64,000 nt of DNA from Acetivibrio alkalicellulosi (lineage in GTDB: Bacteria; Bacillota; Clostridia; Acetivibrionales; Acetivibrionaceae), in assembly GCA_008125075.1 (NCBI GenBank), contig VLTH01000003.1, positions 69,199 through 133,198 on the forward strand. Reading direction: 5' to 3'. Under the pieces are notes generated by a model. It was not told the DNA's origin and ran no database searches. It saw nothing but the letters and a program-made list of their open reading frames with translations. The position numbers were made by a program, and so were the translations under genes. Positions within the stretch are counted from its first letter, which is position 1. Every line of letters begins with the position of its first letter. Shown here in pieces: positions 6,755 through 42,938 of this stretch.

Positions 6755-7492
6755 ATGTGTATGATATTTATTTGGTCGATTTTCACTGGTGAAACAGCAA
6801 CTAGCATTGTTGAAAAAATAAAGAATGGGAATAAAGAACTGAAAGAAAAATTTATTGAAGACTACATTCCATTTATAATAAAAGTTATTTCAAGTTTCTA
6901 TTCTTCAAGCATAGTGGATATAAAAAACAGTGATGAATATAGCATAGGACTTATGGCTTTTGATGAAGCAATAGAGAAATATGATAGCAATAAGAATAAG
7001 AGTTTTTTGGGGTTTGCGAAATTGGTGATAAAAAGGAGGATAATAGATTACTTTAGAAATATATCTTCTGTAAGAAAAAAAGAAATTCCATTTTCATCTT
7101 TTAACAGTATAGTTACTTCTGAGTTTGAGGATGAATCAAATATAATTGATTATGATATAGGTTCAGGTAGATATGAAGTCATTAGTGAGTTGGAAGATTT
7201 TTCTAGGCAATTAAAATCATATGGACTAAGTATAAAGAATTTGCCTGAATACATGCCAAAGCATAAGGATTCAAAACAGATGTGTATAAGTATAGCTAAA
7301 AAAATAATTGAAAACAAAAATATCTATAACATATTAAAAACGAAAAAATACTTTAAGATGAAAGAGTTATCTAAAATAATTGATGTTCATCCAAAGACCA
7401 TTGAAAGAAATAGAAGGTTTATAATATGCTTGTGTATAATATATGACAATAATTACAGTAATTTCAAAGCGTATTTGAGTCAAATATCTTAA
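6755..7492 (+). CDS. sigI: RNA polymerase sigma factor SigI
   Basis: Alternative sigma factor of the SigI family (245 residues). Region 2-like residues span about 15-120 (DEYSIGLMAFDEAIEKYD, FLGFAKLVIKRRIIDYFR) and a C-terminal HTH region 4-like domain contains MKELSKIIDVHPKTIERNRR, the SigI signature rather than classical sigma-70 region 4. rsgI follows after 99 bases, the standard sigI-rsgI pair of cellulosomal clostridia, in which RsgI holds SigI inactive until polysaccharide is sensed. Alternative start ATG 6761 has better spacing to GGGAAG. The promoter upstream looks SigI-dependent, so the pair is probably autoregulated. Confidence 0.93.
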   Translation: MCMIFIWSIFTGETATSIVEKIKNGNKELKEKFIEDYIPFIIKVISSFYSSSIVDIKNSDEYSIGLMAFDEAIEKYDSNKNKSFLGFAKLVIKRRIIDYFRNISSVRKKEIPFSSFNSIVTSEFEDESNIIDYDIGSGRYEVISELEDFSRQLKSYGLSIKNLPEYMPKHKDSKQMCISIAKKIIENKNIYNILKTKKYFKMKELSKIIDVHPKTIERNRRFIICLCIIYDNNYSNFKAYLSQIS

Positions 7493-7591
7493 CAGGTAAA
7501 TTTAATAAAAAAACTATAAGATTTTTGGTTTTTTATATAGTTAAAAATAATTATCAAAAAACAAAAATCCACATATTCAGGGGTGGGAAAA

Positions 7592-9208
7592 ATGAAACAA
7601 AAGGGTATCGTAATAAGTATGACTAAGAATAAAGTAGTGGTAACTACTAATGAGTTTCAGTGCTTCTATATTAAAAGAAGGCCTGCAGTTTATGTAGGAA
7701 AGGAAGTTGAATTTACAGCAAAAGAAATAATTAAGAAAAGACCAGTTGTAAAAACACTTTCATTAGGGGTTGCTTGTATGGCTTTTCTATTTATGGTAGT
7801 GTATTTTTTAAATTCTGCTTATATTAAAGATATTTTTACTGAGCCAAAAGTTTTTGCATATATTAATATTGATATTAATCCTAGTTTGGAAATGGAAATC
7901 GATGTTGATGGAAATGTATTGAAGTTAGTTCCCTTAAATGAAGAGTCCAATGCATTTATTAAGAACTTGAGAATTGATAAGGTAAGTGTTTTTGAAGCTA
8001 TTAATAAGATATTAGAAAAAGTAAATATAATAGAAACAAGTAATACTGATAATTATTATATACTTATTTCAAGTACTTTAAATAATAAAGGAAATGAATA
8101 TGATAAAGAATATCAAATGGAAAAGGAAAAACTAGATATAATAGTAAATTCATTAAAAGACAACATACAAGAAAAAGAAGACAGTGAAATGTATGTATAT
8201 GTTGTTCAAGCAGACATATACGAAAGAAAAGAGGCACAGAAGAAAGGTATATCAACAGGAAGATATGTACTGTATAATGAATATAAAAAATCAGAAAGTA
8301 ACTTTTCAATTGAAGAAGCTAAAAGAGTTGGCGTTAATGAGATGTTACTAAACATATTTAATCCTATTTCAGAAAAAGAAAAAGATAATATGCCGATGGA
8401 AACCACTTCACCAACACCGACACCGACACCGACACCGACACCAACATCAACACCAACACCAAAATCAACACCAAAATCAACACCAACATCAACACCAAAA
8501 TCAACACCAACATCAACACCAACATCAACACCAACATCAACATCAACACCAACATCAACATCAACATCAACATCAACACCAACACCAACATCAACATCAA
8601 CACCAACACCAACATCAACACCAACACCAACACCAACACCAATACCAACATCAACACCAACACCAACACCAATACCAACATCAACATCAACATCAATACC
8701 AACATCAATACCAGCATCAATACCAACACCAACACCAATGCCAACAGCAACACCAACAACAGCAAAACCAACACCAACACCACAAATAAACCAAGTGTAT
8801 ATGAGATATGAATCATACAATTATAAAAACCGATATATAAGGCATGAGTCATTTTTAGGGCGCATTTCACCAAATGTATCTCCACTAGATGATTCAATAT
8901 TTAATGTAGTTCTTGGTCTGGCTGACTCCAATTACGTTTCTTTTGAGTCGAAAAATTTTCCGGGATATTACTTGATTCATGAGGACTTTAAAATTGTTCT
9001 TAAACAAAATGATAACTCAGATAACTTTAGAGAGAGTGCAACATTTAAGAAAGTGCCTGGATTAGCTAATAATAACTTAATTTCTTTTCAATCGTATAAT
9101 TATCCAGATAGATATATTCGACACAGGATGTTTTATCTTCATGTTGATGAAATTATTACAGATTTAGAAAAAGAAGATGCTACATTTATTGAAGTTAAAA
9201 TTGACTAA
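7592..9208 (+). CDS. rsgI: Anti-sigma factor RsgI with extracellular CBM42 (arabinofuranose) sensor
   Basis: Membrane anti-sigma factor of 538 residues. Order: cytosolic SigI-binding domain (1 to about 52, MKQKGIVISMTKNKVVV), one membrane helix (about 57-80), conserved extracytoplasmic RsgI domain with NIDINPSLEMEID (the Asn-Pro where RsgI proteins are reported to self-cleave), a roughly 130-residue Pro/Thr/Ser linker, and a C-terminal CBM42/AbfB beta-trefoil (about 408-538) recognised by RYIRHESF, YVSFES, YPDRYIRHRMF and DATF. CBM42 binds arabinofuranosyl side chains of arabinoxylan; C. thermocellum RsgI5 has the same sensor type (from memory). The ATG at 7592 follows AGGGGTGGG; an upstream GTG at 7583 lies inside that site. 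The neighbouring GH62 arabinofuranosidase gene fits the predicted ligand. Confidence 0.93.
   Translation: MKQKGIVISMTKNKVVVTTNEFQCFYIKRRPAVYVGKEVEFTAKEIIKKRPVVKTLSLGVACMAFLFMVVYFLNSAYIKDIFTEPKVFAYINIDINPSLEMEIDVDGNVLKLVPLNEESNAFIKNLRIDKVSVFEAINKILEKVNIIETSNTDNYYILISSTLNNKGNEYDKEYQMEKEKLDIIVNSLKDNIQEKEDSEMYVYVVQADIYERKEAQKKGISTGRYVLYNEYKKSESNFSIEEAKRVGVNEMLLNIFNPISEKEKDNMPMETTSPTPTPTPTPTPTSTPTPKSTPKSTPTSTPKSTPTSTPTSTPTSTSTPTSTSTSTSTPTPTSTSTPTPTSTPTPTPTPIPTSTPTPTPIPTSTSTSIPTSIPASIPTPTPMPTATPTTAKPTPTPQINQVYMRYESYNYKNRYIRHESFLGRISPNVSPLDDSIFNVVLGLADSNYVSFESKNFPGYYLIHEDFKIVLKQNDNSDNFRESATFKKVPGLANNNLISFQSYNYPDRYIRHRMFYLHVDEIITDLEKEDATFIEVKID
8403..8790 (+). repeat. Minisatellite encoding the RsgI Pro/Thr/Ser linker
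   Basis: Short tandem units of the type ACACCAACATCA (variants ACACCG, AAATCA, AATACC) running about 390 bases. It reads as (TP)n/(TS)n and bridges the cell wall between membrane and CBM42. Such repeats slip, so length may differ between strains. Long reverse-strand frames across it are compositional artefacts. Confidence 0.9.
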
Positions 9209-21490: not shown

Positions 21491-22978
21491 ATGTTGAAAA
21501 AATTAATTTGTGTTATGGTTACTCTTTTTATGCTAAGTTCATTTTTGCTTACAGTAAATGTTGTTGGAATGGAGGATTATAAATCCCTTTCTTCCATAGT
21601 TTATGGTGATTTAAATGGAGATGGACATGTTAATTCGGCAGACTATATCTTATTAAAAAGATATGTATTAGGAATAATAACAGAGTTTACATCAGAGCAT
21701 GGAGAAATCGTAGCAGATTTAAATGGAGATGGAGTTATAAATAGTACCGATTGTGTTTTACTAAGAAGATATATTCTAGAAATGATAGATAAGTTTCCTG
21801 TTGAGCAGAATAGTATAGTTATAGGTGAAGGGATAAGTGAAGGTTTTATTGATGGGAATAGCAGATTTGCATTTAATCTGTTTAAACAAATTAATGAAGA
21901 AGATTATGATGAAAATGTATTTATTTCTCCATTTAATATCTCAGTTGCCTTGTCTATGGTTTGTCAGGGTGCAAGCACTACAACTAAGAATGAGATTATA
22001 CAACTTTTGGGGTTTGAAGGGCTTGATATTTTACAGATTAATCAAAGTTATAGATATTTATTAAATCATTTAAATAGATCAAATGAAAAGATTAAAATTA
22101 ATAATAGTAGTTCCATTTGGAAGAATAAATTATTTGGTGACTCGATTGATGATGATTTTACATCTGTCAATCAGGAGATATTTGACTCGTTTGTAGCTTC
22201 GCGTTATTTTACTGATGAGAGTCTTTTAGATGAAATAAATAATTGGATTTCTGATGCTACACAGGGACAAATACCAGAGGTTCTTAAAGAAATTGATCCA
22301 TTTGCTATGTTATATATTATATCTGCAATTTATTTTAATGGAATTTGGACAGAAGATTTTAATATTGATAATACTATCGAACATGAATTTTTTATGGATG
22401 ATGGAAGCATAAAAAGTGTTATGATGATGAATAAGATTAGTAAAATGAATTATGGGGAAGGTAATGGATACCAGGCAGTAAGGTTGCCCTATGGAGATGG
22501 TGAACTTTCCATGTACTGTATTCTTCCTGATGAAGATACTCCTATTAATGATTTTATAAGAGATATGGATGATAATAGATGGAATGAGATAAAAGATAGT
22601 ATGTTTGAACAACAAGTTAGACTCTACTTACCTCGTTTTAAAATTGAATATGGAACAAGGAGCATTGTGGAAGCTTTACAGAATATGGGAATGAATAGTG
22701 CGTTTTGCCAAGAAAGTGCTGATTTTAGTGGGATTTCTGGAATGGGGCCTGGAACAAGTCCAAGTATAAGTGAAGTATTACATAAAGCTGTGGTAGAGGT
22801 GAATGAAGAGGGAACGGAAGCTTCAGCGGTTACTGTAATAATAATTACACCGCCTGGTTTAGGTGGTGGTGGTCCTATAATTCCTAGCTTTTATGCAAAC
22901 AGGCCTTTTATATTTGTAATTGCAGATGACGAATCTGATACAATATTATTCATGGGTAAATACTCTAATGTTCAATAA
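21491..22978 (+). CDS. Cellulosomal serpin with N-terminal type I dockerin
   Basis: 495 residues. Signal peptide (about 1-26), type I dockerin directly after it (about 37-97; DLNGDGHVNSAD and DLNGDGVINSTD), then a full serpin domain (about 115-494). Serpin signatures: NVFISPFNISVALSMV, IISAIYFNGIW, hinge EEGTEASAV and RPFIFVIAD at the C-terminus. The hinge small residues predict an inhibitory serpin that traps serine or cysteine proteases. The reactive loop is unusual, with Pro and Gly runs (TPPGLGGGGPIIP). Dockerin-bearing serpins such as PinA of C. thermocellum are known and thought to guard the cellulosome from proteases. The ribosome site AGGAGGAG precedes the ATG. Confidence 0.95.
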   Translation: MLKKLICVMVTLFMLSSFLLTVNVVGMEDYKSLSSIVYGDLNGDGHVNSADYILLKRYVLGIITEFTSEHGEIVADLNGDGVINSTDCVLLRRYILEMIDKFPVEQNSIVIGEGISEGFIDGNSRFAFNLFKQINEEDYDENVFISPFNISVALSMVCQGASTTTKNEIIQLLGFEGLDILQINQSYRYLLNHLNRSNEKIKINNSSSIWKNKLFGDSIDDDFTSVNQEIFDSFVASRYFTDESLLDEINNWISDATQGQIPEVLKEIDPFAMLYIISAIYFNGIWTEDFNIDNTIEHEFFMDDGSIKSVMMMNKISKMNYGEGNGYQAVRLPYGDGELSMYCILPDEDTPINDFIRDMDDNRWNEIKDSMFEQQVRLYLPRFKIEYGTRSIVEALQNMGMNSAFCQESADFSGISGMGPGTSPSISEVLHKAVVEVNEEGTEASAVTVIIITPPGLGGGGPIIPSFYANRPFIFVIADDESDTILFMGKYSNVQ

Positions 22979-29247: not shown

Positions 29248-30144
29248 ATGAGTAAATTAATTAGAAAATTATCATTAGCAGTAATAATATCAGTTGGGTT
29301 AGGGGTTGTTTTTACAGGTTGTGGAGGAAATAATGACACACCTTCAACTATAAGTGATCCTACAAGTAAACCAGCAGCAGAGAAAACTGAAGATGCAAAT
29401 CAGGAATCGTCACTTAGTGGAAGAATAAACATTGTTGGTTCGACTTCAGTTGCACCACTAGCACAAAAATTAGCAGATGATTTTACTGACATGGAAACTG
29501 GTGTGAGAATAAGTATACAGTCTTTAGGTTCTTCTGCTGGAGTTCAGGCAGCAAATGAGGGTAATGCAGATATTGGAATGTCATCAAGAGAGTTAAAAGA
29601 TGAAGAAAAGGAATGGGGAATGACAGAGCATTTTATTGCTGTAGATGGTATTGCTTTAGTTGTAAATCCTTCAAATTCAGTTTCAGAACTTACTGTTGAA
29701 CAAGTAACAAAAATTTATACAGGAGAAATTACAAACTGGAAAGATGTTGGAGGAGATGACAAAGATATAATAGTTGTAGTGCGTGAAGATGCCTCTGGTA
29801 CTAAAGCTGCATTTGATGAAATTTTAGATTTAAAAGATAAAGTTATAAGTGATGCTTTAGTTGCAGATAGTGGTGGAGCTGTAAGAGCTAATGTAAGTAG
29901 CACTAATGAAACAATAGGATATTTATCTTTGGGGTCTGTTAATGATGATGTAAAAGCTTTAAGTATAAATGGATCTAAGCCTTCAGAAGATACTATAAGA
30001 TCAGGAGAATATCCTATATCAAGAAGATTTTTATTTCTAACAAAAGGAGACATTAAGCCAGAATTACAAGCTTATATAGATTATATTTTTACATCAGCAG
30101 GAAAAGAGATTGTTTCAAAGGAAGGTTATGTCCCAGTGAACTAA
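29248..30144 (+). CDS. pstS: Phosphate ABC transporter substrate-binding lipoprotein PstS
   Basis: 298 residues. Lipobox FTGC gives a lipid-anchored Cys at about 26; a short Ser/Thr linker and the phosphate-binding protein fold follow, with family motifs IVGSTSVAPLA, SSAGVQAANEGNADIGMSSREL and VVREDASGTKAAF. It captures phosphate at the cell surface for PstCAB. First gene of the pst-pho cluster, behind four Pho-box repeats. A strong hairpin after it probably lowers read-through so that PstS is made in excess, as is common. Confidence 0.95.
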   Translation: MSKLIRKLSLAVIISVGLGVVFTGCGGNNDTPSTISDPTSKPAAEKTEDANQESSLSGRINIVGSTSVAPLAQKLADDFTDMETGVRISIQSLGSSAGVQAANEGNADIGMSSRELKDEEKEWGMTEHFIAVDGIALVVNPSNSVSELTVEQVTKIYTGEITNWKDVGGDDKDIIVVVREDASGTKAAFDEILDLKDKVISDALVADSGGAVRANVSSTNETIGYLSLGSVNDDVKALSINGSKPSEDTIRSGEYPISRRFLFLTKGDIKPELQAYIDYIFTSAGKEIVSKEGYVPVN

Positions 30145-30155
30145 GGAATGTCTGA

Positions 30156-30194
30156 AATATAACTTCCACTTTTCGTGTGGAAGTTATATTTTCA
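30156..30194 (+). terminator. Hairpin between pstS and pstC
   Basis: AATATAACTTCCAC pairs with GTGGAAGTTATATT (offset by one base) around a tiny loop, followed by TTT. Likely a partial terminator setting a high pstS to pstCAB ratio. Confidence 0.75.
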
Positions 30195-30281
30195 GCATAC
30201 CTAAGTATTAAACTATATTTTCAAGTTTGTAGTGTGGAGTATAACTTCACCTGCTAATTTGAATAATGATTAAAAATTACT

Positions 30282-31259
30282 ATGAGATGGTGTGTTGATT
30301 ATATGGTATCTAAAATATTAACTAGAATTACCAAAAGGCAAAAAATGCAATTAAATATTACTAAAGACATGTTAAATAAAAAAAACTTAAAAAAAATAGG
30401 GAAAAAGGTATTTGAAAAGATTGTAGAAAACATTTTTCTTTTATTTGCCTGTATTTCTGTTATATGTGTTGCTTTAATTATTTTTTATATATTTACAAAA
30501 GGTTCGCCGGCTATTTTTAAAATTGGATTGGGTCATTTTTTATTTGGAACTAAATGGGCTCCTACTCAAGGCATATATGGTATACTACCAATGATAGTTG
30601 GGTCAATATATGGAACAATCGGAGCAGTAATAGTAGGTACTACAATAGGTTTGTTTACAGCAATATTTATGGCAGAGATTTCACCACCATGGATGGTTAA
30701 AATCTTCAGACCAGCTATTCAACTCTTAGCAGGTATACCTTCTGTTATTTATGGTTTTTTTGGTTTGCTAGTAATAGTTCCAATAATCCATAAGTTTTAT
30801 GGAGGGGGAGGTAATAGTCTCTTGGCAGTAATCATTATTCTTTCAATTATGATTTTACCAACGCTTATAAGTATTTCAGAAATTTCATTAAGATCAGTAC
30901 CAAAAGAGTATAAAGAAGGATCACTAGCCCTTGGTGCCACACACATACAGACCATATTTAAAGTCATGATTCCAGCGGCAAAATCAGGAATACTAACCTC
31001 AATAGTTTTAGCAGCAGGCAGAGCCATGGGTGAAACTATGGCTGTTATACTTGTAGCAGGTAATTCTCCAATTATGCCTACATCATTAATTAGTCGTGTT
31101 AGGACTCTGACTGCAAATGTAGCTTTTGAAATGAGTTATGCCTCAGGTCTTCATAGGGAAGCACTTTTTGCAACAGGAGTAGTGTTGTTTATTTTTATCA
31201 TGATTTTAAATATAGTTTTAAATTTTATAATCAAAAAGGCAGGTGCATCAGTTAAATGA
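30282..31259 (+). CDS. pstC: Phosphate ABC transporter permease PstC
   Basis: Up to 325 residues with six membrane helices and the binding-protein-dependent permease loop (SLALGATHIQTIFKVMIPAAKSG). PstC motifs LAGIPSVIYGFFGL and GRAMGETMAVILVAGN are present. The start is uncertain: ATG 30282, ATG 30303 and ATG 30345 (the last after AAAAGG) are all possible, and the extra N-terminus is basic. Its last bases overlap pstA by ATGA. Confidence 0.93.
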   Translation: MRWCVDYMVSKILTRITKRQKMQLNITKDMLNKKNLKKIGKKVFEKIVENIFLLFACISVICVALIIFYIFTKGSPAIFKIGLGHFLFGTKWAPTQGIYGILPMIVGSIYGTIGAVIVGTTIGLFTAIFMAEISPPWMVKIFRPAIQLLAGIPSVIYGFFGLLVIVPIIHKFYGGGGNSLLAVIIILSIMILPTLISISEISLRSVPKEYKEGSLALGATHIQTIFKVMIPAAKSGILTSIVLAAGRAMGETMAVILVAGNSPIMPTSLISRVRTLTANVAFEMSYASGLHREALFATGVVLFIFIMILNIVLNFIIKKAGASVK

Positions 31260-32092
31260 GTACAAGAATAAAAGATAGGCTGTTATACATTATAATATGC
31301 GCCATTTCCTTTATAACACTAGGCATACTAGTTTGGATTATGGCGTATATAATAACGAAGGGACTTCCTTATATTAGTTGGGAGTTTTTAACAACTGATT
31401 ACAGGGGGGACAGAGAAGGAATACTTCCATCCATTGTTACAACTTTATATCTCATAATTATATCTCTGTCAATATCAACACCTATTGGAATTGGGACGGC
31501 AATTTATCTTGTTGAATACTCTAAACCAGGAAAAACTATAGATGTAATTAGATTTGCAATTGTAACACTTGCAGGAATACCTTCTATAATATATGGATTG
31601 TTTGGATATATGTTTTTTGTTATTGCCTTAAATTATGGTAACTCATTTCTAGCAGGTGGAATGACCATTAGTATTATGGTGTTGCCAACAATAATAAGGA
31701 CAACTGAAGAAGCACTTAAAGCAGTTCCCAAATCATTTAGAGAAGGAAGCCTTGCATTAGGAGCTACAAAACTTACTACTATAATAAAAATAGTATTACC
31801 TTCTGCTATACCTGGAATTTTGGCAGCTATAATTTTAAGTATTGGTCGAATTGTTGGTGAAACAGCAGTACTAATTTTTACATTAGGAACTGCTACGGGA
31901 TTTCCAACTAGTATTATGGATTCAGCAAGAACACTTTCAGTTCACTTATATATGCTTGCAAAAGAAGGGCTCTCCTTTGAACAGGCATTTGCTACAGCGA
32001 CAGTTTTACTTATTATTACTGCTTTTATAAATTTTATTTCTAGTAAGATAGCTTTAAATATAAAACGATTTGCCATGGGATCAAAAAATTAA
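31256..32092 (+). CDS. pstA: Phosphate ABC transporter permease PstA
   Basis: 278 residues with six helices. Motifs LAGIPSIIYGLFG, SLALGATKLTTIIKIVLPSAIPG and GRIVGETAVLIFTLGT place it as the second phosphate permease. It overlaps pstC by 4 bases (ATGA), showing translational coupling, and is followed by pstB after 21 bases. Confidence 0.94.
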   Translation: MSTRIKDRLLYIIICAISFITLGILVWIMAYIITKGLPYISWEFLTTDYRGDREGILPSIVTTLYLIIISLSISTPIGIGTAIYLVEYSKPGKTIDVIRFAIVTLAGIPSIIYGLFGYMFFVIALNYGNSFLAGGMTISIMVLPTIIRTTEEALKAVPKSFREGSLALGATKLTTIIKIVLPSAIPGILAAIILSIGRIVGETAVLIFTLGTATGFPTSIMDSARTLSVHLYMLAKEGLSFEQAFATATVLLIITAFINFISSKIALNIKRFAMGSKN

Positions 32093-32113
32093 ACCTAAAG
32101 AAAGGTTGGTAAC

Positions 32114-32875
32114 ATGAAATCTGATTTACAAAAAATACATACGCAAAATCTTGATTTATTTTATGGTGACACTCAAGCATTAAAAGATGTTTCTATTTCT
32201 CTAGAAGAAAAAAAAGTTACTGCTTTTATAGGACCATCTGGATGTGGAAAATCCACTTTTTTAAAAACTCTTAACCGTATGAATGACCTTGTGGATAATG
32301 TAAAAATTTCGGGGAAAGTATTTCTTGACAATTTGAATATTTATGAAAAATATGATATAGTTGAGCTTAGAAAAAGAGTTGGTATGGTTTTTCAAAAGCC
32401 AAACCCTTTTCCTATGTCAATATATGATAATATAGCATATGGACCAAGAGTTCATGGAATAAAGTCTAAATCAATACTAAATGAGATAGTTGAAAAAAGC
32501 CTTAAAAATGCAGCACTATGGGATGAAGTAAAAGACAGATTAAAGCAAAATGCATTAGGACTATCAGGAGGTCAACAGCAAAGACTTTGTATTGCAAGAG
32601 TCCTTGCAGTTGAGCCAGAAGTAGTTTTAATGGATGAGCCAACATCTGCGTTAGATCCATTGTCAACATTAAAAATAGAAGATTTAATCAATGAACTTAA
32701 AAAAAATTACACTATAATAATTGTTACACATAATATGCAGCAGGCAGGTCGTATCTCTGATAAAACAGCCTTTTTTCTCTTAGGTGAAATTGTAGAATAT
32801 GGATCTACAGATAAGATTTTTAGTGTACCAGAAGATAAAAGGACAGAAGACTATATTACAGGAAGATTTGGATAA
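32114..32875 (+). CDS. pstB: Phosphate ABC transporter ATPase PstB
   Basis: 253 residues. Walker [11 protein letters not shown]-loop [11 protein letters not shown] (the PstB-typical KPNPFP), signature LSGGQQQR, Walker [14 protein letters not shown] and switch His in [12 protein letters not shown]. It energises uptake by PstCA and, with PhoU, signals phosphate status to the PhoR kinase. Confidence 0.96.
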
Positions 32876-32906
32876 TATTCCATAGTATAAAGGAGCATGA
32901 TTATAT

Positions 32907-33608
32907 ATGACAAGGAATTATTTTGAAAAAGAATTAGAGCAACTTCATATTGAAATGATAAAAATGGGAAGCTTGGTAGAAGAGTCAATAGAAAACACAA
33001 TTCAAGCTCTAAAAAAACAGGATATTGACCTAGCTTGGGATGTTTTTAAAAATGATGATGTTATTGACGAATATGAGCAAAGAATTGAAAAACATTGCCT
33101 TAATCTTATAGCAAGGCAGCAGCCTTTAGCAAATGATCTTAGGACAATTAGCACTGCGCTTAAAATAATAACCGACATGGAGCGTATAGGAGACCATTCT
33201 GCTGATATAGCTGAAATAACAATACGAATGGCTAATGAAAAATACATAAAACCATTAATTGATGTTCCTAAGATGGCTGACCTTGCAAAGCAAATGGTTA
33301 ACAGATCAATTGATGCATATATCAAACAGGATCTAGAACTAGCAAAAAAGGTATGCGCTAGTGATGATGAAGTAGATGATTTGTTTTTTAAAATAGTACT
33401 TGAACTAATAAATATTGTAAAAAGTGATGTTTCTGCTATTGAACAGGCCATTAATTTTATGTTTATAGCAAAATATCTTGAACGAATGGCAGATCATGCA
33501 ACTAACATTGCAGAATGGGTAGTTTATAATGTTACAGGAGAACATGAACATCTGACAAGATATTACCATAAGGACGACAGAATTAGGAATCCATTTATCG
33601 ACAAATAA
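32907..33608 (+). CDS. phoU: Phosphate signalling protein PhoU
   Basis: 233 residues, all helical, with the two PhoU repeats showing the metal-binding pattern DMERIGDHSADIAE and YLERMADHATNIAEW. It couples Pst transporter state to PhoR and keeps the Pho regulon off when phosphate is plentiful. Ribosome site AAGGAG with a slightly long spacer. Confidence 0.95.
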   Translation: MTRNYFEKELEQLHIEMIKMGSLVEESIENTIQALKKQDIDLAWDVFKNDDVIDEYEQRIEKHCLNLIARQQPLANDLRTISTALKIITDMERIGDHSADIAEITIRMANEKYIKPLIDVPKMADLAKQMVNRSIDAYIKQDLELAKKVCASDDEVDDLFFKIVLELINIVKSDVSAIEQAINFMFIAKYLERMADHATNIAEWVVYNVTGEHEHLTRYYHKDDRIRNPFIDK

Positions 33609-33653: not shown

Positions 33654-34364
33654 ATGAGTGAAAAGATGATTTTTTTTGTAGAAGACGAAAAACATATTCA
33701 AGAGTTAGTTAAATTTAATTTAGAAGAAAAAGGTTATAAGGTAAGGGTTTTTGAAGATGGTGAGAGTCTATTAAAAGAGTGTAAACATGCTTTACCTAGT
33801 TTATTTATACTTGATGTTATGCTTCCAGGTATAGATGGTTTTGAAATATGTAGAAGAATACGTCAGGACAATCACCTAAAAAAAATACCAGTTATAATAT
33901 TAACTGCAAAAGGTGAAGAATTTGATAAAGTTTTAGGCCTTGAACTTGGTGCAGATGATTATATTACTAAACCCTTTAGTATAAGAGAGTTTGTTGCAAG
34001 AGTAAGAGCAATGTACAGAAGAGCCGATAGCAATGAGAACAATGAAATAGAAGTAATTCGAGCAGGCAACATAAAGATTGATTTTTTAAAAAGAGAGGTG
34101 TTTAAAGATGACAAATGCCTTGAGCTATCATATAAGGAATTTGAAATACTAAAGCTCCTAATATTAAATAAAGGAAAGGTTTTATCAAGAGATACACTGT
34201 TAGAGAAAATATGGGGATTTGATTATTTTGGTGAGACCAGAACGGTTGATGTACATATAAGATATTTAAGACAAAAGATAGAAGATAATGATAATCAACC
34301 TGTATATATTGAAACAGTTAGGGGAATAGGTTATAGATTTACTGATAAAGAGGTAGATAATTAA
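33654..34364 (+). CDS. phoB: Phosphate response regulator (OmpR/PhoB family)
   Basis: 236 residues. Receiver with acceptor Asp in LFILDVMLPGIDGFE and KPFS, then a winged-helix OmpR domain with LSYKEFEILKLLILNKGKVLSR split by the recognition helix TRTVDVHIRYLRQKIED and GIGYRF. By context it is the regulator that binds the TTTAACA arrays at 29138 and 39712. Could be called phoP. One base separates its stop from the phoR start. Confidence 0.92.
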   Translation: MSEKMIFFVEDEKHIQELVKFNLEEKGYKVRVFEDGESLLKECKHALPSLFILDVMLPGIDGFEICRRIRQDNHLKKIPVIILTAKGEEFDKVLGLELGADDYITKPFSIREFVARVRAMYRRADSNENNEIEVIRAGNIKIDFLKREVFKDDKCLELSYKEFEILKLLILNKGKVLSRDTLLEKIWGFDYFGETRTVDVHIRYLRQKIEDNDNQPVYIETVRGIGYRFTDKEVDN

Positions 34365-34365
34365 A

Positions 34366-36138
34366 ATGAAAAAAAAAATATTCAAGTACTATATTATTCT
34401 ATTTGTCTGTGTATTGTTTATCACAGCTTTTTTTACTTCTACAATATCAGGAAGGTTTTACAAATTAGAAGTTGAAAATAAGCTAATTGCCATTGGTGCA
34501 TCAATTGAGCATTACATTGTAAATATGGCAAAGTATGAAGAAGTAGATTACAATTATGTGTCAAAAGATTTTGCTGATTATATAAATAGTGCAGAAAATT
34601 ATTTTGGGTTCAATGATAATATAAGAGTTACTATTGTGGACTTTAATGGTAATGTTCTAGGGGATTCTGATGCAAACTATACGCAGATGGAAAATCATGG
34701 ACAAAGAAGAGAAATAAAACTGGCCATGGAAGATGGATTTGGAAAAGATATTAGAAGAAGCCATACTATTAACACTGACTTATTATATGTTGCTGTATCG
34801 TTAAATCAACTCGATATTATTGCCAGGATTTCAGTTCCACTTTCCCAGATAAAAGAAATAAACAAACTTATATGGTTATATACTATTTTAACAACATTAG
34901 TGGCAATACTTTTGACTATTATTGTATCTGTTAAAATATCCAATTCATTGATAAGACCTTTTAACGAATTAATAATTGCATCAAAAGAAATATCTAATGG
35001 CAATTATACTGGGAGAATAAATTTAAAATCAAAGGATGAAATAGGTCAATTATCAAACTCCTTTAACGAAATGGCAGAAAAACTTGAAAAGACAATAAAT
35101 GATTTATGGTACAAAAAAGTTGAAATAGAATCTATTGTAGACAGTATGACGATTGGTATTGTTGCAGTAGATACTATGTATAGAGTAGTTTTAATAAATC
35201 CAGTTGCAATTGAGTTATTTAAAGTAGATAGTGGTAAGAATATAATTGGCAACAACATTGTTGAGAGCATAAGGAACAATCAGGTGAATGTTATTTTAAG
35301 GAATACTATTTATAACAATAAACCTTTAGAAAGTGAATATATTTGTATGGATGATACAGTATTAAAGCTTTCTACAAGCCCAATAAAGCCAAAAGTTGAG
35401 GACAGTAAAAACTCAGGTGCTATTGTATTTATACAGGATGTAACAAAAATTAGGAAGCTTGAAAAAATAAGGACGGAGTTTGTATCTAATGTTACACATG
35501 AGCTAAAAACTCCTATAACTTCAATTAGAGGTTTTATTGAAACTTTAAAAGGTGGGGCTATAAATAATCAACAGGTTTCAATGAGATTTTTAGACATAAT
35601 AGATATAGAGGCAGAGAGACTACATGCTCTAATTGATGACATATTACAGTTGTCAGAAATTGAATCCAGACAAAATGGTCCAAAGATTGAAAAGCTAGAT
35701 ATTAAAGTAGTTGTAGATAAGGTGATTGAAGTAGTTCAAAACATTGCACAAGAGAGAAGTGTGACTTTATACAACGAAGTAGAAGAGGGGCTTACTATTA
35801 ATGCAGACAAAAACAGACTAAAACAGCTATTATTAAATTTAATTGATAATGCAATTAAATATAATGTAAAAAATGGAGCTGTTAATATCAAAGCTTACAG
35901 AAGTGAAGGGAAAATTGTGATTATAGTAAAAGATACTGGTATAGGTATTGATTCTGAGCATTTTTCCAGAATATTTGAAAGGTTTTATAGAGTTGATAAA
36001 GGAAGATCAAGAGATCAGGGCGGCACTGGATTAGGTCTTTCGATCGTAAAACACATTGTTAATCTTTTTAGTGGAGATATAAAAGTAAATAGTAAATCAG
36101 GAGAGGGAAGTGAGTTTATAGTTCAGTTACCTATTTAG
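34366..36138 (+). CDS. phoR: Phosphate sensor histidine kinase PhoR
   Basis: 590 residues. Membrane helix about 7-26, outer sensor domain, second helix about 168-188, HAMP, PAS (about 250-365), HisKA with phospho-His in FVSNVTHELKTPITSIRGF, and HATPase (NLIDNAIKYN, VKDTGIGID, GTGLGLSIVKHIV). Last gene of the pst-pho cluster; it phosphorylates the response regulator when phosphate is scarce. Confidence 0.93.
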   Translation: MKKKIFKYYIILFVCVLFITAFFTSTISGRFYKLEVENKLIAIGASIEHYIVNMAKYEEVDYNYVSKDFADYINSAENYFGFNDNIRVTIVDFNGNVLGDSDANYTQMENHGQRREIKLAMEDGFGKDIRRSHTINTDLLYVAVSLNQLDIIARISVPLSQIKEINKLIWLYTILTTLVAILLTIIVSVKISNSLIRPFNELIIASKEISNGNYTGRINLKSKDEIGQLSNSFNEMAEKLEKTINDLWYKKVEIESIVDSMTIGIVAVDTMYRVVLINPVAIELFKVDSGKNIIGNNIVESIRNNQVNVILRNTIYNNKPLESEYICMDDTVLKLSTSPIKPKVEDSKNSGAIVFIQDVTKIRKLEKIRTEFVSNVTHELKTPITSIRGFIETLKGGAINNQQVSMRFLDIIDIEAERLHALIDDILQLSEIESRQNGPKIEKLDIKVVVDKVIEVVQNIAQERSVTLYNEVEEGLTINADKNRLKQLLLNLIDNAIKYNVKNGAVNIKAYRSEGKIVIIVKDTGIGIDSEHFSRIFERFYRVDKGRSRDQGGTGLGLSIVKHIVNLFSGDIKVNSKSGEGSEFIVQLPI

Positions 36139-38870: not shown

Positions 38871-39407
38871 ATGACAAACGAAGAATTTCAAAAATTAGTT
38901 TTAGAGCAACTTTCAGGACTAAAAAATGATGTAACAGGAATTGAAAATAATGTAACAGGACTAAAAAATGATGTAACAGGACTAAAAAATGATGTAACAG
39001 GACTAAAAAATGATGTAACAGGAATTAAAAATGATGTAACAGGAATTAAAAATGATGTAACAGGACTTAAAAATGATGTAACAGGACTTAAAAATGATGT
39101 AACAGGACTTAAAAATGATGTAACAGGAATTGAAAATAATGTAACAGGACTAAAAAATGATGTAACAGGACTTAAAAATGATGTAACAGGACTTAAAAAT
39201 GATGTAACAGGACTTAAAAATGATGTAACAAGTATTAAGGTTCGTCAAGATGAAATTTACCAAGTTGTTAAAGCCATTGAACATTCTAACCAAGTTGGGA
39301 AAGCTGAGCTTGATAAACACGAATTCAGAATTGCCAAAGTAGAAGGAAAATTCAAAAAAGTTGCAAAAATAATGGATGAAGACATTGATAAAGCATCAAA
39401 TCTCTAA
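38871..39407 (+). CDS. Coiled-coil protein with 15 near-identical heptads
   Basis: 178 residues, no signal peptide or membrane helix. Residues 15-119 are fifteen copies of a heptad (TGLKNDV with variants TGIKNDV, TGIENNV), giving hydrophobic residues at regular i, i+3/i+4 positions as in a long coiled coil. N- and C-terminal caps (MTNEEFQKLVLEQL; about 120-178 with KVRQDEIYQVVKAIEHSNQ) are non-repetitive and also helical. I do not recognise a function; similar short cytosolic coiled-coil proteins occur in clostridia. A strong -10 and AAAGGA ribosome site show it is a real gene. Confidence 0.75.
   Translation: MTNEEFQKLVLEQLSGLKNDVTGIENNVTGLKNDVTGLKNDVTGLKNDVTGIKNDVTGIKNDVTGLKNDVTGLKNDVTGLKNDVTGIENNVTGLKNDVTGLKNDVTGLKNDVTGLKNDVTSIKVRQDEIYQVVKAIEHSNQVGKAELDKHEFRIAKVEGKFKKVAKIMDEDIDKASNL
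38913..39227 (+). repeat. 21-bp tandem repeat inside the heptad-repeat gene
   Basis: Fifteen 21-base units with few differences, in frame. Near identity at synonymous sites indicates recent expansion by slippage or recombination. It is not a CRISPR array since there are no spacers. Confidence 0.95.
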
Positions 39408-39711: not shown

Positions 39712-39758
39712 TTTAACATTTGCTTAATATAGATTTAAACATATAGAGTTATTATAAT
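39712..39758 (+). promoter_or_regulatory. Pho box and promoter of the alkaline phosphatase gene
   Basis: TTTAACA at 39712, CTTAATA at 39723 and TTTAAAC at 39734 keep the 11-base period of Pho boxes; TATAAT at 39753-39758 is the -10. Same architecture as the pstS promoter, so the gene should be induced by phosphate limitation. Confidence 0.78.
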
Positions 39759-39833
39759 TATGGTCGACCAAATAATAAAATATCAAATTACACACTTTAA
39801 CCATTGTAGATAATTGAAAGGGGATACTTAATA

Positions 39834-41699
39834 ATGTTTAAGTTTAAAAAAGGAATTATTGCATCTTTACTAGTAATTATATTTATAACTTCATGTGTTT
39901 TCACTGCTGTAATGTCAAATGAATTTAGTTTTTCTAACGCAAATAATGACTATTCAGGAAGAATGCCAAAGTATGTGTTTCTCTTTATTGGTGATGGAAT
40001 GAGCTATCCACAAATAAACTCAGCTGAAATATACGAAGGAAGTCTACTTTATGGGGACTCAATGGTTAACATAAGAAGACTTAGCTTCACAGAGTTTCCT
40101 GTAGAAGGTGTATGTACAACTTTTGATGCAGAATCATTTATTCCAGATTCAGCTTCAACAGCTACATCAATAGCATCAGGAAAGAAAACATTAGGCGGAA
40201 TTATCAACATGGATACAACAAGAACATCTTCATTTACTCCATTCCCATACTTATTAAAAGAAGAAGGATACAAAATAGGTATAGTTAGTAGTGTTCCAAT
40301 AGATCATGCAACACCTGCAGCTTTTTATTCAAGTGTTCCATCAAGAGGCGATGATTACGAAATTGCAGTTCAGCTTGCAAACAGTGGTTTTGACTATTTT
40401 GGTGGTGGAGGAATCCGTAGACCAAGAGGAAGAAGTGGTGACCTACCTTGTGCAATTGAAATGGCTATAAATAATGGATATACATATGTGAATACATATG
40501 AAGAAATTTTAGCTCTTAATAAAGAATCAGGAAAAGTAATTGCAGTAAATCCAGTTTTAGATAGTTCATCTGCTTTGCCATATGAATTAGATCGTGCAGA
40601 AGATGATCTTTCACTTGCAGATTATACAAGATTAGGTATTGACTTATTGTATGATGAAAAAGGCAAAGGTTTTTTCATGATGGTTGAGTCAGGAAAGATA
40701 GACTGGGCTTGTCATGCTAATGATGCAGCAGCGTCAATTCATGACACACTTGCATTTGAAAGAGCTATAAATGAAGCTATTGAGTTTTATAATAAACATC
40801 CAAAGGATACTCTTATAATTGTTACAGGAGATCATGAATGTGGTGGAATGACACTAGGATTTGCAGGAACAGGATATGACACATTCTATGATAAAATAGC
40901 ATTCCAGACTATGTCATACATTGAGTTTGATAAAATTATTGAAGACTATAGATCAAATACATCAAGAGAAGATGCAACTTTAGAAGACTTACTTCCTGAA
41001 ATTAAAGCAGCATTTGGTTTAATAATGTCAACTGATGAAGATGCACAAAATTATCCTATAATGGTTCTTTCAGATTTTGAAGTTCAAAAATTAGAAGATG
41101 CTCTAGTTCACACAATGACTCCAAGAAATCAAAGACAGTATACTCCAAATGACAGACTTTTATATGGAGGCTATGAGCCATTATCAGTAACTTTAACACA
41201 CATTTTAAACAATAAAGCAGGTATTGGCTGGACATCATATTCACATACTGGATTACCTCTTCCTGTTTATGCAATGGGATCAGGTCAGGAAATATTTAAT
41301 GGAAGCTACGATAATACTGATATCTACAAAAAAATAGTTTCAATAATGAATCTAAATGATCAAAAACCAGCTAAAAGTGATCCAACAGTATCTTATGTTA
41401 TGACAAATGATTGGGGCTCTGGAGCAACTATAAATGTAACAATACATAACAACACTGATGCACCAATAGATGGATGGCAATTAGATTGGAACTTCCAAGG
41501 AAGTCAAAAAATAACGAATATGTGGAATGGTCAGTTTACTCAAACAGGAGCTAATGTTACAGTAACAAACAATACTTATAACAGAATTATACCAGCTAAT
41601 GGATTTGTAACTATAGGTTTTAATATTTCTTACAATGGTAATATTAGAGTACCTAGAACATTTACTTTAAATGGTGGTCCTGTAAACATAGAAAAATAA
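39834..41699 (+). CDS. Secreted alkaline phosphatase fused to a cellulose-binding CBM2
   Basis: 621 residues. Signal sequence (about 1-40); PhoA-type alkaline phosphatase domain (about 45-500) with metal ligand Asp in FIGDGM, nucleophile Ser106 in PDSASTAT, VESGKIDW, VTGDHECGGM and the late metal His in SYSHTGLP. A C-terminal CBM2-like domain (about 515-621) starts around SYVMTNDWGSGATINV and has GWQLDWNFQG, MWNGQFTQTG and FTLNGG; two surface Trp are kept and the third is Tyr. The domain is clearly related to the CBM2 of the GH11 xylanase at 3113-4684. It would hydrolyse phosphate esters outside the cell while bound to cellulose (inference). Pho-box control fits phosphate scavenging. Fusion of these two families is unusual. 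Confidence 0.9.
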   Translation: MFKFKKGIIASLLVIIFITSCVFTAVMSNEFSFSNANNDYSGRMPKYVFLFIGDGMSYPQINSAEIYEGSLLYGDSMVNIRRLSFTEFPVEGVCTTFDAESFIPDSASTATSIASGKKTLGGIINMDTTRTSSFTPFPYLLKEEGYKIGIVSSVPIDHATPAAFYSSVPSRGDDYEIAVQLANSGFDYFGGGGIRRPRGRSGDLPCAIEMAINNGYTYVNTYEEILALNKESGKVIAVNPVLDSSSALPYELDRAEDDLSLADYTRLGIDLLYDEKGKGFFMMVESGKIDWACHANDAAASIHDTLAFERAINEAIEFYNKHPKDTLIIVTGDHECGGMTLGFAGTGYDTFYDKIAFQTMSYIEFDKIIEDYRSNTSREDATLEDLLPEIKAAFGLIMSTDEDAQNYPIMVLSDFEVQKLEDALVHTMTPRNQRQYTPNDRLLYGGYEPLSVTLTHILNNKAGIGWTSYSHTGLPLPVYAMGSGQEIFNGSYDNTDIYKKIVSIMNLNDQKPAKSDPTVSYVMTNDWGSGATINVTIHNNTDAPIDGWQLDWNFQGSQKITNMWNGQFTQTGANVTVTNNTYNRIIPANGFVTIGFNISYNGNIRVPRTFTLNGGPVNIEK

Positions 41700-41725: not shown

Positions 41726-41756
41726 AACAAGGGATATATATTTTATATCCCTTGTT
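41726..41756 (+). terminator. Hairpin after the alkaline phosphatase gene
   Basis: Near-perfect inverted repeat AACAAGGGATATATA ... TATATCCCTTGTT, without a strong T-run. Likely terminator or partial terminator before the YibE/F gene. Confidence 0.65.
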
Positions 41757-41783: not shown

Positions 41784-42938
41784 TTGATTAAAAGTATTTT
41801 AAAAAGTACAGAATTTTATTTTGTTGCTGTAGTTATCGTTTTTATTCTTGTTCTTTTGTTTATTCCAACTGGTTTTGAAAGAGAAATCTATCCTAATACA
41901 ACTAGAGCAAAAGCCTTAATACTTGAAGTAGATAATTCAAATGTTCGTTCAGCTCGTATTATACAAGAAGGAGAACAGAAATGTAAAATTCTAATTCTTA
42001 ATGGGAAATTTAAGGGATATGAAGCAAATGGCATAAATAGGCTTACTGGAAAACTTGAATTGGACAAAATATTTAATGAAGGTGATAAGGCATTTGTTGT
42101 AATTGACTATAATAATGATAGTATTCATTTTGTAAATATATTGGATCACTATCGTCTAAACATTGAATTAATTCTTTTTATTGCATTTGTACTTTTATTA
42201 ATAATATTTGCAGGCTGGATAGGAGTTAAGTCTGTTCTTTCATTTATTCTTACTGTATTATTGTTGTGGAAAATACTACTTCCTTCGTTTTTGAAGGGTT
42301 TAAATCCTATATTTATTTCTCTTCTTGTTGTAACTATAATGACCACCATTACACTTTTTCTTGTGGCAGGTCTCAATAAGAAATCACTAGTTGCCATACT
42401 TGGTTCACTTTCTGGATCTTACTTTACTTGTATTTTAGCCATAATATTCGGTAGTCTTTTTAAAATTCATGGTGCCGTTATGCCTTTTTCTGAAAACTTA
42501 TTGTATTCAGGATACTCCCACCTAAGACTGTCTGACATATTTATAGCAGGTATTTTTATAGCATCGGCTGGAGCAATTATGGATCTTTCGATGGATATTT
42601 CTGTGTCAGTTTTTGAAATATATCAAAAGAAACCTGATTTAACAATCAAAGAAGCTATTTTTTCAGGATTTACAATAGGAAGAGCTGTTATAGGTACAAT
42701 GACAACAACACTTTTATTGGCATATTCAGGTGGATATGTAGCGATGTTTATGGTATTTATGGCTCAAGGAACACCCATATTGAATATATTAAATTTAAAT
42801 TATGTATCCTCTGAAATTTTGCATACTTTAGTAGGTAGCTTTGGTTTAGTTACAGTTGCACCACTAACAGCTATTTTAGCTGGTGTAATATTTCATAAAA
42901 ATACTTTTAAAAGTATAAGTAATGGCGGGTGCATGTAA
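41784..42938 (+). CDS. YibE/F family membrane protein
   Basis: 384 residues. One N-terminal helix, an outer beta domain (about 35-110), then some seven helices (about 125-375). The conserved YibE/F core includes GWIGVKSVLSF, SGSYFTCILA and GAIMDLSMDISVSVFE. A transporter-like family of unknown substrate. Start TTG at 41784, 8 bases after AAAGGAG. It may share the alkaline phosphatase transcript if the intervening hairpin is leaky. Confidence 0.85.
   Translation: MIKSILKSTEFYFVAVVIVFILVLLFIPTGFEREIYPNTTRAKALILEVDNSNVRSARIIQEGEQKCKILILNGKFKGYEANGINRLTGKLELDKIFNEGDKAFVVIDYNNDSIHFVNILDHYRLNIELILFIAFVLLLIIFAGWIGVKSVLSFILTVLLLWKILLPSFLKGLNPIFISLLVVTIMTTITLFLVAGLNKKSLVAILGSLSGSYFTCILAIIFGSLFKIHGAVMPFSENLLYSGYSHLRLSDIFIAGIFIASAGAIMDLSMDISVSVFEIYQKKPDLTIKEAIFSGFTIGRAVIGTMTTTLLLAYSGGYVAMFMVFMAQGTPILNILNLNYVSSEILHTLVGSFGLVTVAPLTAILAGVIFHKNTFKSISNGGCM

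What the first reader, a model, noticed from the sequence alone, without database searches (positions are those of the whole stretch)
39712..41699. Phosphate-starvation alkaline phosphatase fused to a cellulose-binding CBM2
A complete PhoA-type phosphatase (DSA nucleophile, GDHECGG, SHTGLP) ends in a CBM2-like domain with WGSG, GWQLDW, MWNGQF and a terminal LNGG. The gene sits behind an 11-base-periodic Pho box and a TATAAT, like pstS 10 kb upstream. This suggests phosphate scavenging targeted to plant cell-wall surfaces, linking phosphate limitation and cellulose binding in one protein. I know of no described example, but my knowledge is not exhaustive.
Basis: partly seen in the sequence, partly recalled or inferred. 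Interest (0 to 1): 0.82.

Follow-up and report, generated by a model that had tools for sequence, protein, structure and literature searches.

The report
Cellulose-binding secreted alkaline phosphatase
A cellulose-eating bacterium carries a phosphate-releasing enzyme with a cellulose-gripping module joined to its end, probably so that phosphate is freed right where the cells feed; it is an unusual pairing of two well-known parts.

Summary
Confirmed. ORF 39834-41699 (+, 621 aa) is a PhoA-family alkaline phosphatase (PF00245, 1.8e-55) joined by about 8 linker residues to a CBM2 (PF00553, 2.6e-27). The catalytic and metal positions checked against E. coli PhoA are kept, except D153 to His and K328 to Trp. 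A CBM2-only model (pLDDT 91.9) matches cellulose-binding CBM2s at TM 0.86-0.93; contact positions are W, W, Y, as in EngD. It is the genome's only PF00245 protein. Ten same-order homologues (49-63% identical) end where the CBM2 begins; the 80 best named AP loci have tails of at most 41 aa; no other phosphatase with a CBM2 appeared in six genome searches, which cover part of one phylum. pstSCAB-phoU and a PhoPR-like pair lie 3.7-10.6 kb upstream. The pstS Pho box is strong; the phosphatase's is barely above chance. The genome is probably Clostridium alkalicellulosi, whose cellulosome paper places its six CBM2s in hemicellulases; three of six are in glycoside hydrolases here. Binding, activity and induction are untested. 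A new variant of a known kind.

The parts
39713..39740 (+). putative Pho box: TTAACA-N5-TTAATA plus a degenerate third repeat
   Evidence: 16 of 18 for three hexamers at 11-base spacing; p 0.030 (two repeats) and 0.066 (three) against simulated copies of the same 250 bp
39753..39758 (+). TATAAT, putative -10 element
   Evidence: read from sequence; no good -35 hexamer at the usual spacing
39816..39823 (+). putative ribosome-binding site GAAAGGGG
   Evidence: read from sequence
39834..41699 (+). alkaline phosphatase-CBM2 fusion protein, 621 aa
   Evidence: single ORF; both domains over the Pfam cut-off
39834..39917 (+). signal peptide, about residues 1-28; ITSC at residues 18-21 resembles a lipobox (recalled pattern), but no Cys stands at that position in 10 of 10 homologues
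   Evidence: alignment; the cleavage site was not predicted by any tool here
39942..41357 (+). alkaline phosphatase domain, residues 37-508; nucleophile S106; D54, T160, R171, E285, D290, H294, D333, H334, H471
41358..41381 (+). linker DQKPAKSD, residues 509-516
   Evidence: lies between the end of the homologues (within 2 residues of 508) and the CBM_2 match
41385..41678 (+). CBM2, residues 518-615; contact aromatics W527, W564, Y582
41726..41756 (+). inverted repeat after the stop codon, possible terminator
   Evidence: read from sequence, not scored
29139..29176 (+). Pho box of pstS: four TTAACA repeats spaced 11, 11 and 10 bases
   Evidence: 18 of 18 for the first three; no 18 in 20 simulated windows (same call)
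29248..33608 (+). pstS, pstC, pstA, pstB, phoU
   Evidence: NCBIfam matches over cut-off
33654..36138 (+). PhoP/PhoR-like response regulator and sensor kinase
   Evidence: kinase over the PnpS cut-off; the regulator's top NCBIfam models (YycF, PhoB) are below their cut-offs

Best explanation
The gene encodes a secreted metal-dependent alkaline phosphomonoesterase that is probably switched on by phosphate shortage together with pst. Its C-terminal CBM2 fastens it to cellulose, the solid food on which the cells live, so phosphate cut from organic esters is released next to attached cells rather than lost to the medium. Shown by sequence: the single ORF, both domains, the active-site residues checked, cellulose-type binding residues, no dockerin, and a CBM absent from close homologues. 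Inferred: secretion, binding to cellulose, phosphate control, and the benefit of local phosphate release.
For: Both domains are far over cut-off. The catalytic and metal positions checked are kept, but for two. The CBM2 model matches the CBM2s of Cellulomonas fimi (TM 0.86 for the NMR structure, 0.91-0.92 for a chargeless variant) and EngD (0.93), with W, W, Y at the contact positions as in EngD. The pst-phoU and regulator genes are nearby, with a strong pstS box. The genome is rich in cellulosome genes: 47 cohesin matches, and two dockerin proteins with GH10 or CBM6 in this window. It is the only PF00245 protein in the genome. An engineered AP-CBM1 fusion has phosphatase activity that is used to read out its binding to cellulose and chitin (PMC5962083, title and passages), so the layout is physically workable.
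Against: The phosphatase's own Pho box is weak (p 0.030 and 0.066; scores like it are near the chance count in the window), and on the two-repeat test only 1 of 10 homologues is below 0.05. No binding, activity or expression data exist. The likely habitat, soda lakes, can be rich in phosphate (PMC11837993 and PMC11678467, search listing only). Chitin-binding domains also appear among the fold matches, and the cellulose-binding CBM2 of ScLPMO10C matches less well than several of them (TM 0.68). Phosphatases of other families were not looked for in the genome. The fusion is seen in one genome only, so selection cannot be tested.
Confidence: 0.66

Rival explanations
1. The CBM2 brings the phosphatase to a substrate: it removes phosphate groups carried on plant or microbial polysaccharides, as the glucan phosphatases laforin and SEX4 do with their starch- or glycogen-binding modules (both recalled).
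For: A CBM next to a phosphatase is the layout of glucan phosphatases (recalled).
Against: PhoA-family enzymes are broad phosphomonoesterases (recalled), and CBM2 targets unphosphorylated cellulose. The gene neighbours serve phosphate uptake. Ten homologues without a CBM suggest that the module is an add-on.
Confidence: 0.08
2. A chance domain fusion with no selected role: a secreted general phosphatase acquired a CBM2 by domain shuffling, harmlessly.
For: Only one genome has it among those searched, and close homologues do without. CBM2s occur beside varied partners in this genome.
Against: The CBM2 is at most 54% identical to any other one sampled, so it is not a fresh copy of those, yet it keeps all three contact aromatics and a confident fold.
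Confidence: 0.18
3. It is a lipoprotein: Cys21 in ITSC is lipidated, so the phosphatase sits on the cell and the CBM2 helps to hold the cell to cellulose. (Compatible with the best explanation apart from the place of anchoring.)
For: ITSC fits a lipobox pattern (recalled) at residues 18-21.
Against: 0 of 10 homologues have a Cys at that position, and the hydrophobic stretch continues past it (VFTAV).
Confidence: 0.12

Closest known systems
   Same: ten are 49-63% identical, with the same active site; L011 is the sister in the tree (97 SH-aLRT, quick tree)
   Different: 10 of 10 end within 2 residues of our residue 508, with no CBM2
CBM2 of endoglucanase EngD, Clostridium cellulovorans (PDB 3ndy)
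   Same: 47% identity in the structural alignment, TM 0.93, same W/W/Y contact positions
   Different: attached to an endoglucanase, not a phosphatase
Other multi-domain bacterial alkaline phosphatases (with SLH and choice-of-anchor, or Cu_amine_oxidN1 modules)
   Same: PhoA domain plus C-terminal modules in one protein
   Different: no CBM in the 8 phosphatase ORFs scanned, from 15 regions fetched
Engineered alkaline phosphatase-CBM fusions (e.g. AP-CBM1, PMC5962083)
   Same: phosphatase with a C-terminal carbohydrate-binding module; activity used to read out binding (passages)
   Different: man-made, CBM1, a laboratory tool
Glucan phosphatases laforin and SEX4 (recalled)
   Same: phosphatase plus carbohydrate-binding module
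   Different: unrelated eukaryotic phosphatase fold, starch- or glycogen-binding modules, glycan substrates (recalled)

Membership tests
Alkaline phosphatase family (PF00245) | profile match over the curated cut-off | tested here: met
   189 bits against 24.4
Alkaline phosphatase family (PF00245) | serine nucleophile, arginine and two-Zn/Mg ligands | tested here: met
   S106, R171, D54, T160, E285, D290, H294, D333, H334, H471 align to the E. coli residues; D153 to H158 and K328 to W291 differ
Alkaline phosphatase family (PF00245) | phosphomonoesterase activity at alkaline pH | not testable with these tools
   needs an enzyme assay
CBM family 2 (PF00553) | profile match over the curated cut-off | tested here: met
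   95.5 bits against 24, profile positions 2-99 of 101
CBM family 2 (PF00553) | CBM2 beta-sandwich fold | tested here: met
   model pLDDT 91.9; the five best matches are CBM2 structures, TM 0.86-0.93
CBM family 2 (PF00553) | three surface aromatics of the cellulose-binding type (CBM2a; positions recalled) | tested here: met
   W527, W564, Y582 align with the W, W, W of 1exg and the W, W, Y of EngD
CBM family 2 (PF00553) | binding to cellulose | not testable with these tools
   needs a pull-down
Phosphate (Pho) regulon | PhoP-type box of 11-base direct repeats upstream (pattern recalled) | tested here: inconclusive
   two repeats p 0.030, three repeats p 0.066; near the chance count window-wide
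Phosphate (Pho) regulon | induction at low phosphate | not testable with these tools
   needs RT-qPCR or RNA-seq
Cellulosome component | dockerin module | tested here: not met
   no dockerin match in Pfam at E up to 1

The most novel reading that the evidence does not exclude
A cellulose-degrading bacterium has made its one PF00245 phosphatase cellulose-bound, so that phosphate-starvation output is tied to adhesion on the carbon source and released phosphate is kept for the attached cells: nutrient scavenging immobilised on the food itself.
Probability: 0.4. Interest if true: 0.58.

Novelty: new variant of a known kind. Interest (0 to 1): 0.42.

Why it matters
CBMs are usually discussed as helpers of polysaccharide-degrading enzymes. 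A CBM on a phosphate-scavenging enzyme would suggest that cellulose adhesion is also used to place other nutrient-acquiring enzymes at the cell-substrate interface, where carbon is plentiful and phosphorus may be scarce. It gives a natural version of the AP-CBM reporters made in laboratories and a candidate cellulose-immobilised alkaline phosphatase. If the genome is that of Clostridium alkalicellulosi, it also corrects a published statement that its six CBM2s sit in hemicellulases.

Tried and rejected
Lipoprotein reading: set low because no homologue of ten has the Cys. Full-length AlphaFold model: mean pLDDT 68.7 from an 11-row alignment, too weak to use; no domain arrangement is claimed. 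Donor of the CBM2: the tree is unresolved around it (50/85), so none is named. Viral contigs: 10 stretches matched a pattern, none encodes a relative. Plasmids: 208 records hold an AP match; of the 40 listed none is matched beyond residue 529, and 168 records were not listed. The CBM2 alone matches 11 plasmid records, 10 listed; the features named under them are glycoside hydrolases or cellulose-binding proteins, or none. Papers: 8 searches. Six bear on a natural phosphatase-CBM fusion, and none showed one in the titles and opening abstracts listed (6 of 6 listed; 14: 20 of 34; 36: 15 of 27; 67: 12 of 68; 68: 12 of 15; 69: none found); some concern the organism and its habitat. Passages with 'phosphatase' in PMC2721979 and PMC5590126 are unrelated; one in PMC4035507 mentions, citing others, that some cohesin or dockerin proteins may act in dephosphorylation. 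Confidence of the best explanation was lowered from 0.70 to 0.66, and that of the chance-fusion rival raised from 0.17 to 0.18, after a recount of the Pho-box controls.

Full report
The observation. The window holds one ORF at 39834-41699 (+), 621 aa. Pfam finds Alk_phosphatase (1.8e-55, 189 bits) and CBM_2 (2.6e-27, 95.5 bits, residues 518-615), both far over their cut-offs, and no dockerin. The best solved relatives are alkaline phosphatases for the first part and the CBM2 of EngD for the last.

The phosphatase. Against E. coli PhoA, the nucleophile (S106), the arginine (R171) and D54, T160, E285, D290, H294, D333, H334 and H471 are present. Two other positions differ: D153 is H158 and K328 is W291, and the same two residues stand in all seven homologues aligned in that call. 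From memory, the His/Trp type is known from other phosphatases; that was not tested. The genome (G000, 5.31 Mb, 3 contigs) has only one PF00245 protein, this one; phosphatases of other families were not looked for.

The CBM2. The module aligns with EngD's CBM2 and the C. fimi CBM2a, and the three contact positions (recalled as W17, W54, W72 in C. fimi) are W527, W564 and Y582; EngD too has W, W, Y. A model from 25 sequences has mean pLDDT 91.9. Its five best fold matches are CBM2s: a chargeless C. fimi variant (TM 0.91-0.92), EngD (0.93) and the C. fimi NMR structure (0.86). Chitin-binding and xylan-binding relatives match less well (TM 0.62-0.80), but so does one cellulose-binding CBM2, that of ScLPMO10C (0.68; same call). 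Cellulose is the best-supported ligand; chitin is not excluded.

An added module. Ten homologues from the same order (49-63% identical) stop within 2 residues of our residue 508; ours continues with eight linker residues and the CBM2. Searches of 119, 58, 398, 391, 17 and 38 genomes (overlapping; handles run to G850) list no other phosphatase with a CBM2. The last four used cut-offs of 1e-20 or 1e-25, and all are within one phylum. Two listed phosphatase matches reach past residue 517: G349, to 520, in a 523-aa frame with a stop codon inside the match, and G318, to 548; the G318 tail has no CBM in Pfam, and G349 was not examined further. In the family of the window's genome, the other 13 genomes searched match only in the CBM2 part or not at all at E up to 0.001. 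Inheritance with losses and transfer within the order are both possible. Eight phosphatase ORFs from other genomes carry other extras or none (SLH and choice-of-anchor, Cu_amine_oxidN1, GDSL lipase, endonuclease/phosphatase, Ig-like domains), but no CBM.

Regulation. Upstream lie pstS, pstC, pstA, pstB and phoU, all over their NCBIfam cut-offs, then a response regulator and a kinase over the PnpS cut-off; the regulator's own best models are below theirs. pstS has four TTAACA repeats; its 18-of-18 score did not occur in 20 simulated windows, and 17 or more is expected about 0.4 times a window. Upstream of the phosphatase, two repeats are perfect and the third is degenerate. Window-wide, 10 places score 16 of 18 (about 7 expected) and 7 places score 12 of 12 on two repeats (about 4 expected), so this box alone would not stand out. 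The local p is 0.030 (two repeats) or 0.066 (three). Among the ten homologues' upstream regions, on three repeats five have p below 0.02, four lie between 0.05 and 0.14 and one at 0.20; on two repeats only one is below 0.05. The best sites lie at varied distances (64 to 224 bases upstream), and the sequences are related and AT-rich, so this is mild support at most. Phosphate control is plausible, not shown.

Which organism. Clostridium alkalicellulosi DSM 17461, from a soda lake, fits: the paper on its cellulosome (PMC6780208: abstract, passages and section 3.4 seen) gives 5.3 Mb, six CBM2s and a ScaA with ten type I cohesins. Here there are 5.31 Mb, six CBM_2 matches and a 2111-aa frame with ten cohesin matches; 47 cohesin matches in all compare with 44 cohesins in its abstract and 45 cohesin-containing proteins in its results. 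That paper says that the six CBM2s appear in hemicellulases. Of the six here, three are in glycoside hydrolases (two GH11, one GH16). The others are this phosphatase, a Pro/Thr-rich protein with an N-terminal hydrophobic segment (L005) and a CBM2-alpha/beta-hydrolase protein (L006). The word phosphatase does not occur in that paper's main text; its supplements could not be read.

How it most likely works. A secreted phosphatase, probably made when phosphate is short, is held on cellulose by its CBM2. Cells that live on cellulose would thereby gather phosphate from organic esters at the interface where they feed. The sequence shows the parts; secretion, binding, induction and benefit are inferred. 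Against the story: the weak box, soda lakes that may be rich in phosphate (listing only), and a single genome, which gives no test of selection.

Novelty. Each half is ordinary; the natural pairing was not found in the six paper searches that bear on it (some listings capped). Laboratory AP-CBM fusions exist (PMC5962083, passages). I file it as a new variant of a known kind: a modular phosphatase with an unexpected targeting module.

Noticed in passing
L005 (own genome C2), L026, L033, L037: Four species of the genus have a protein with an N-terminal hydrophobic segment, a long Pro/Thr/Ser-rich stretch and a C-terminal CBM2: possibly a membrane-anchored cellulose binder. The CBM2s of L026, L033, L037 and L148 form one clade (95/85); that of L005 falls outside it on a long branch.
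   Followed up: partly
window 6755-9208: A SigI sigma factor and an RsgI-like anti-sigma factor whose C-terminal end is an AbfB (arabinofuranosidase B) domain, just upstream of GH10 and CBM6-dockerin genes: a possible arabinoxylan sensor.
   Followed up: partly
window 21491-22978: A serpin with an N-terminal dockerin, a protease inhibitor probably placed in the cellulosome.
   Followed up: no
window 38871-39407: A 178-aa protein built of near-perfect (G)LKNDVT repeats directly upstream of the phosphatase; its many Pfam matches look like low-complexity noise.
   Followed up: no
L006 (own genome C2): An N-terminal CBM2-like domain joined to an alpha/beta hydrolase, another unusual CBM2 pairing.
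   Followed up: no
   Followed up: partly
window 41784-42938: A YibE/F-like membrane protein directly downstream of the phosphatase; a possible terminator lies between them.
   Followed up: no
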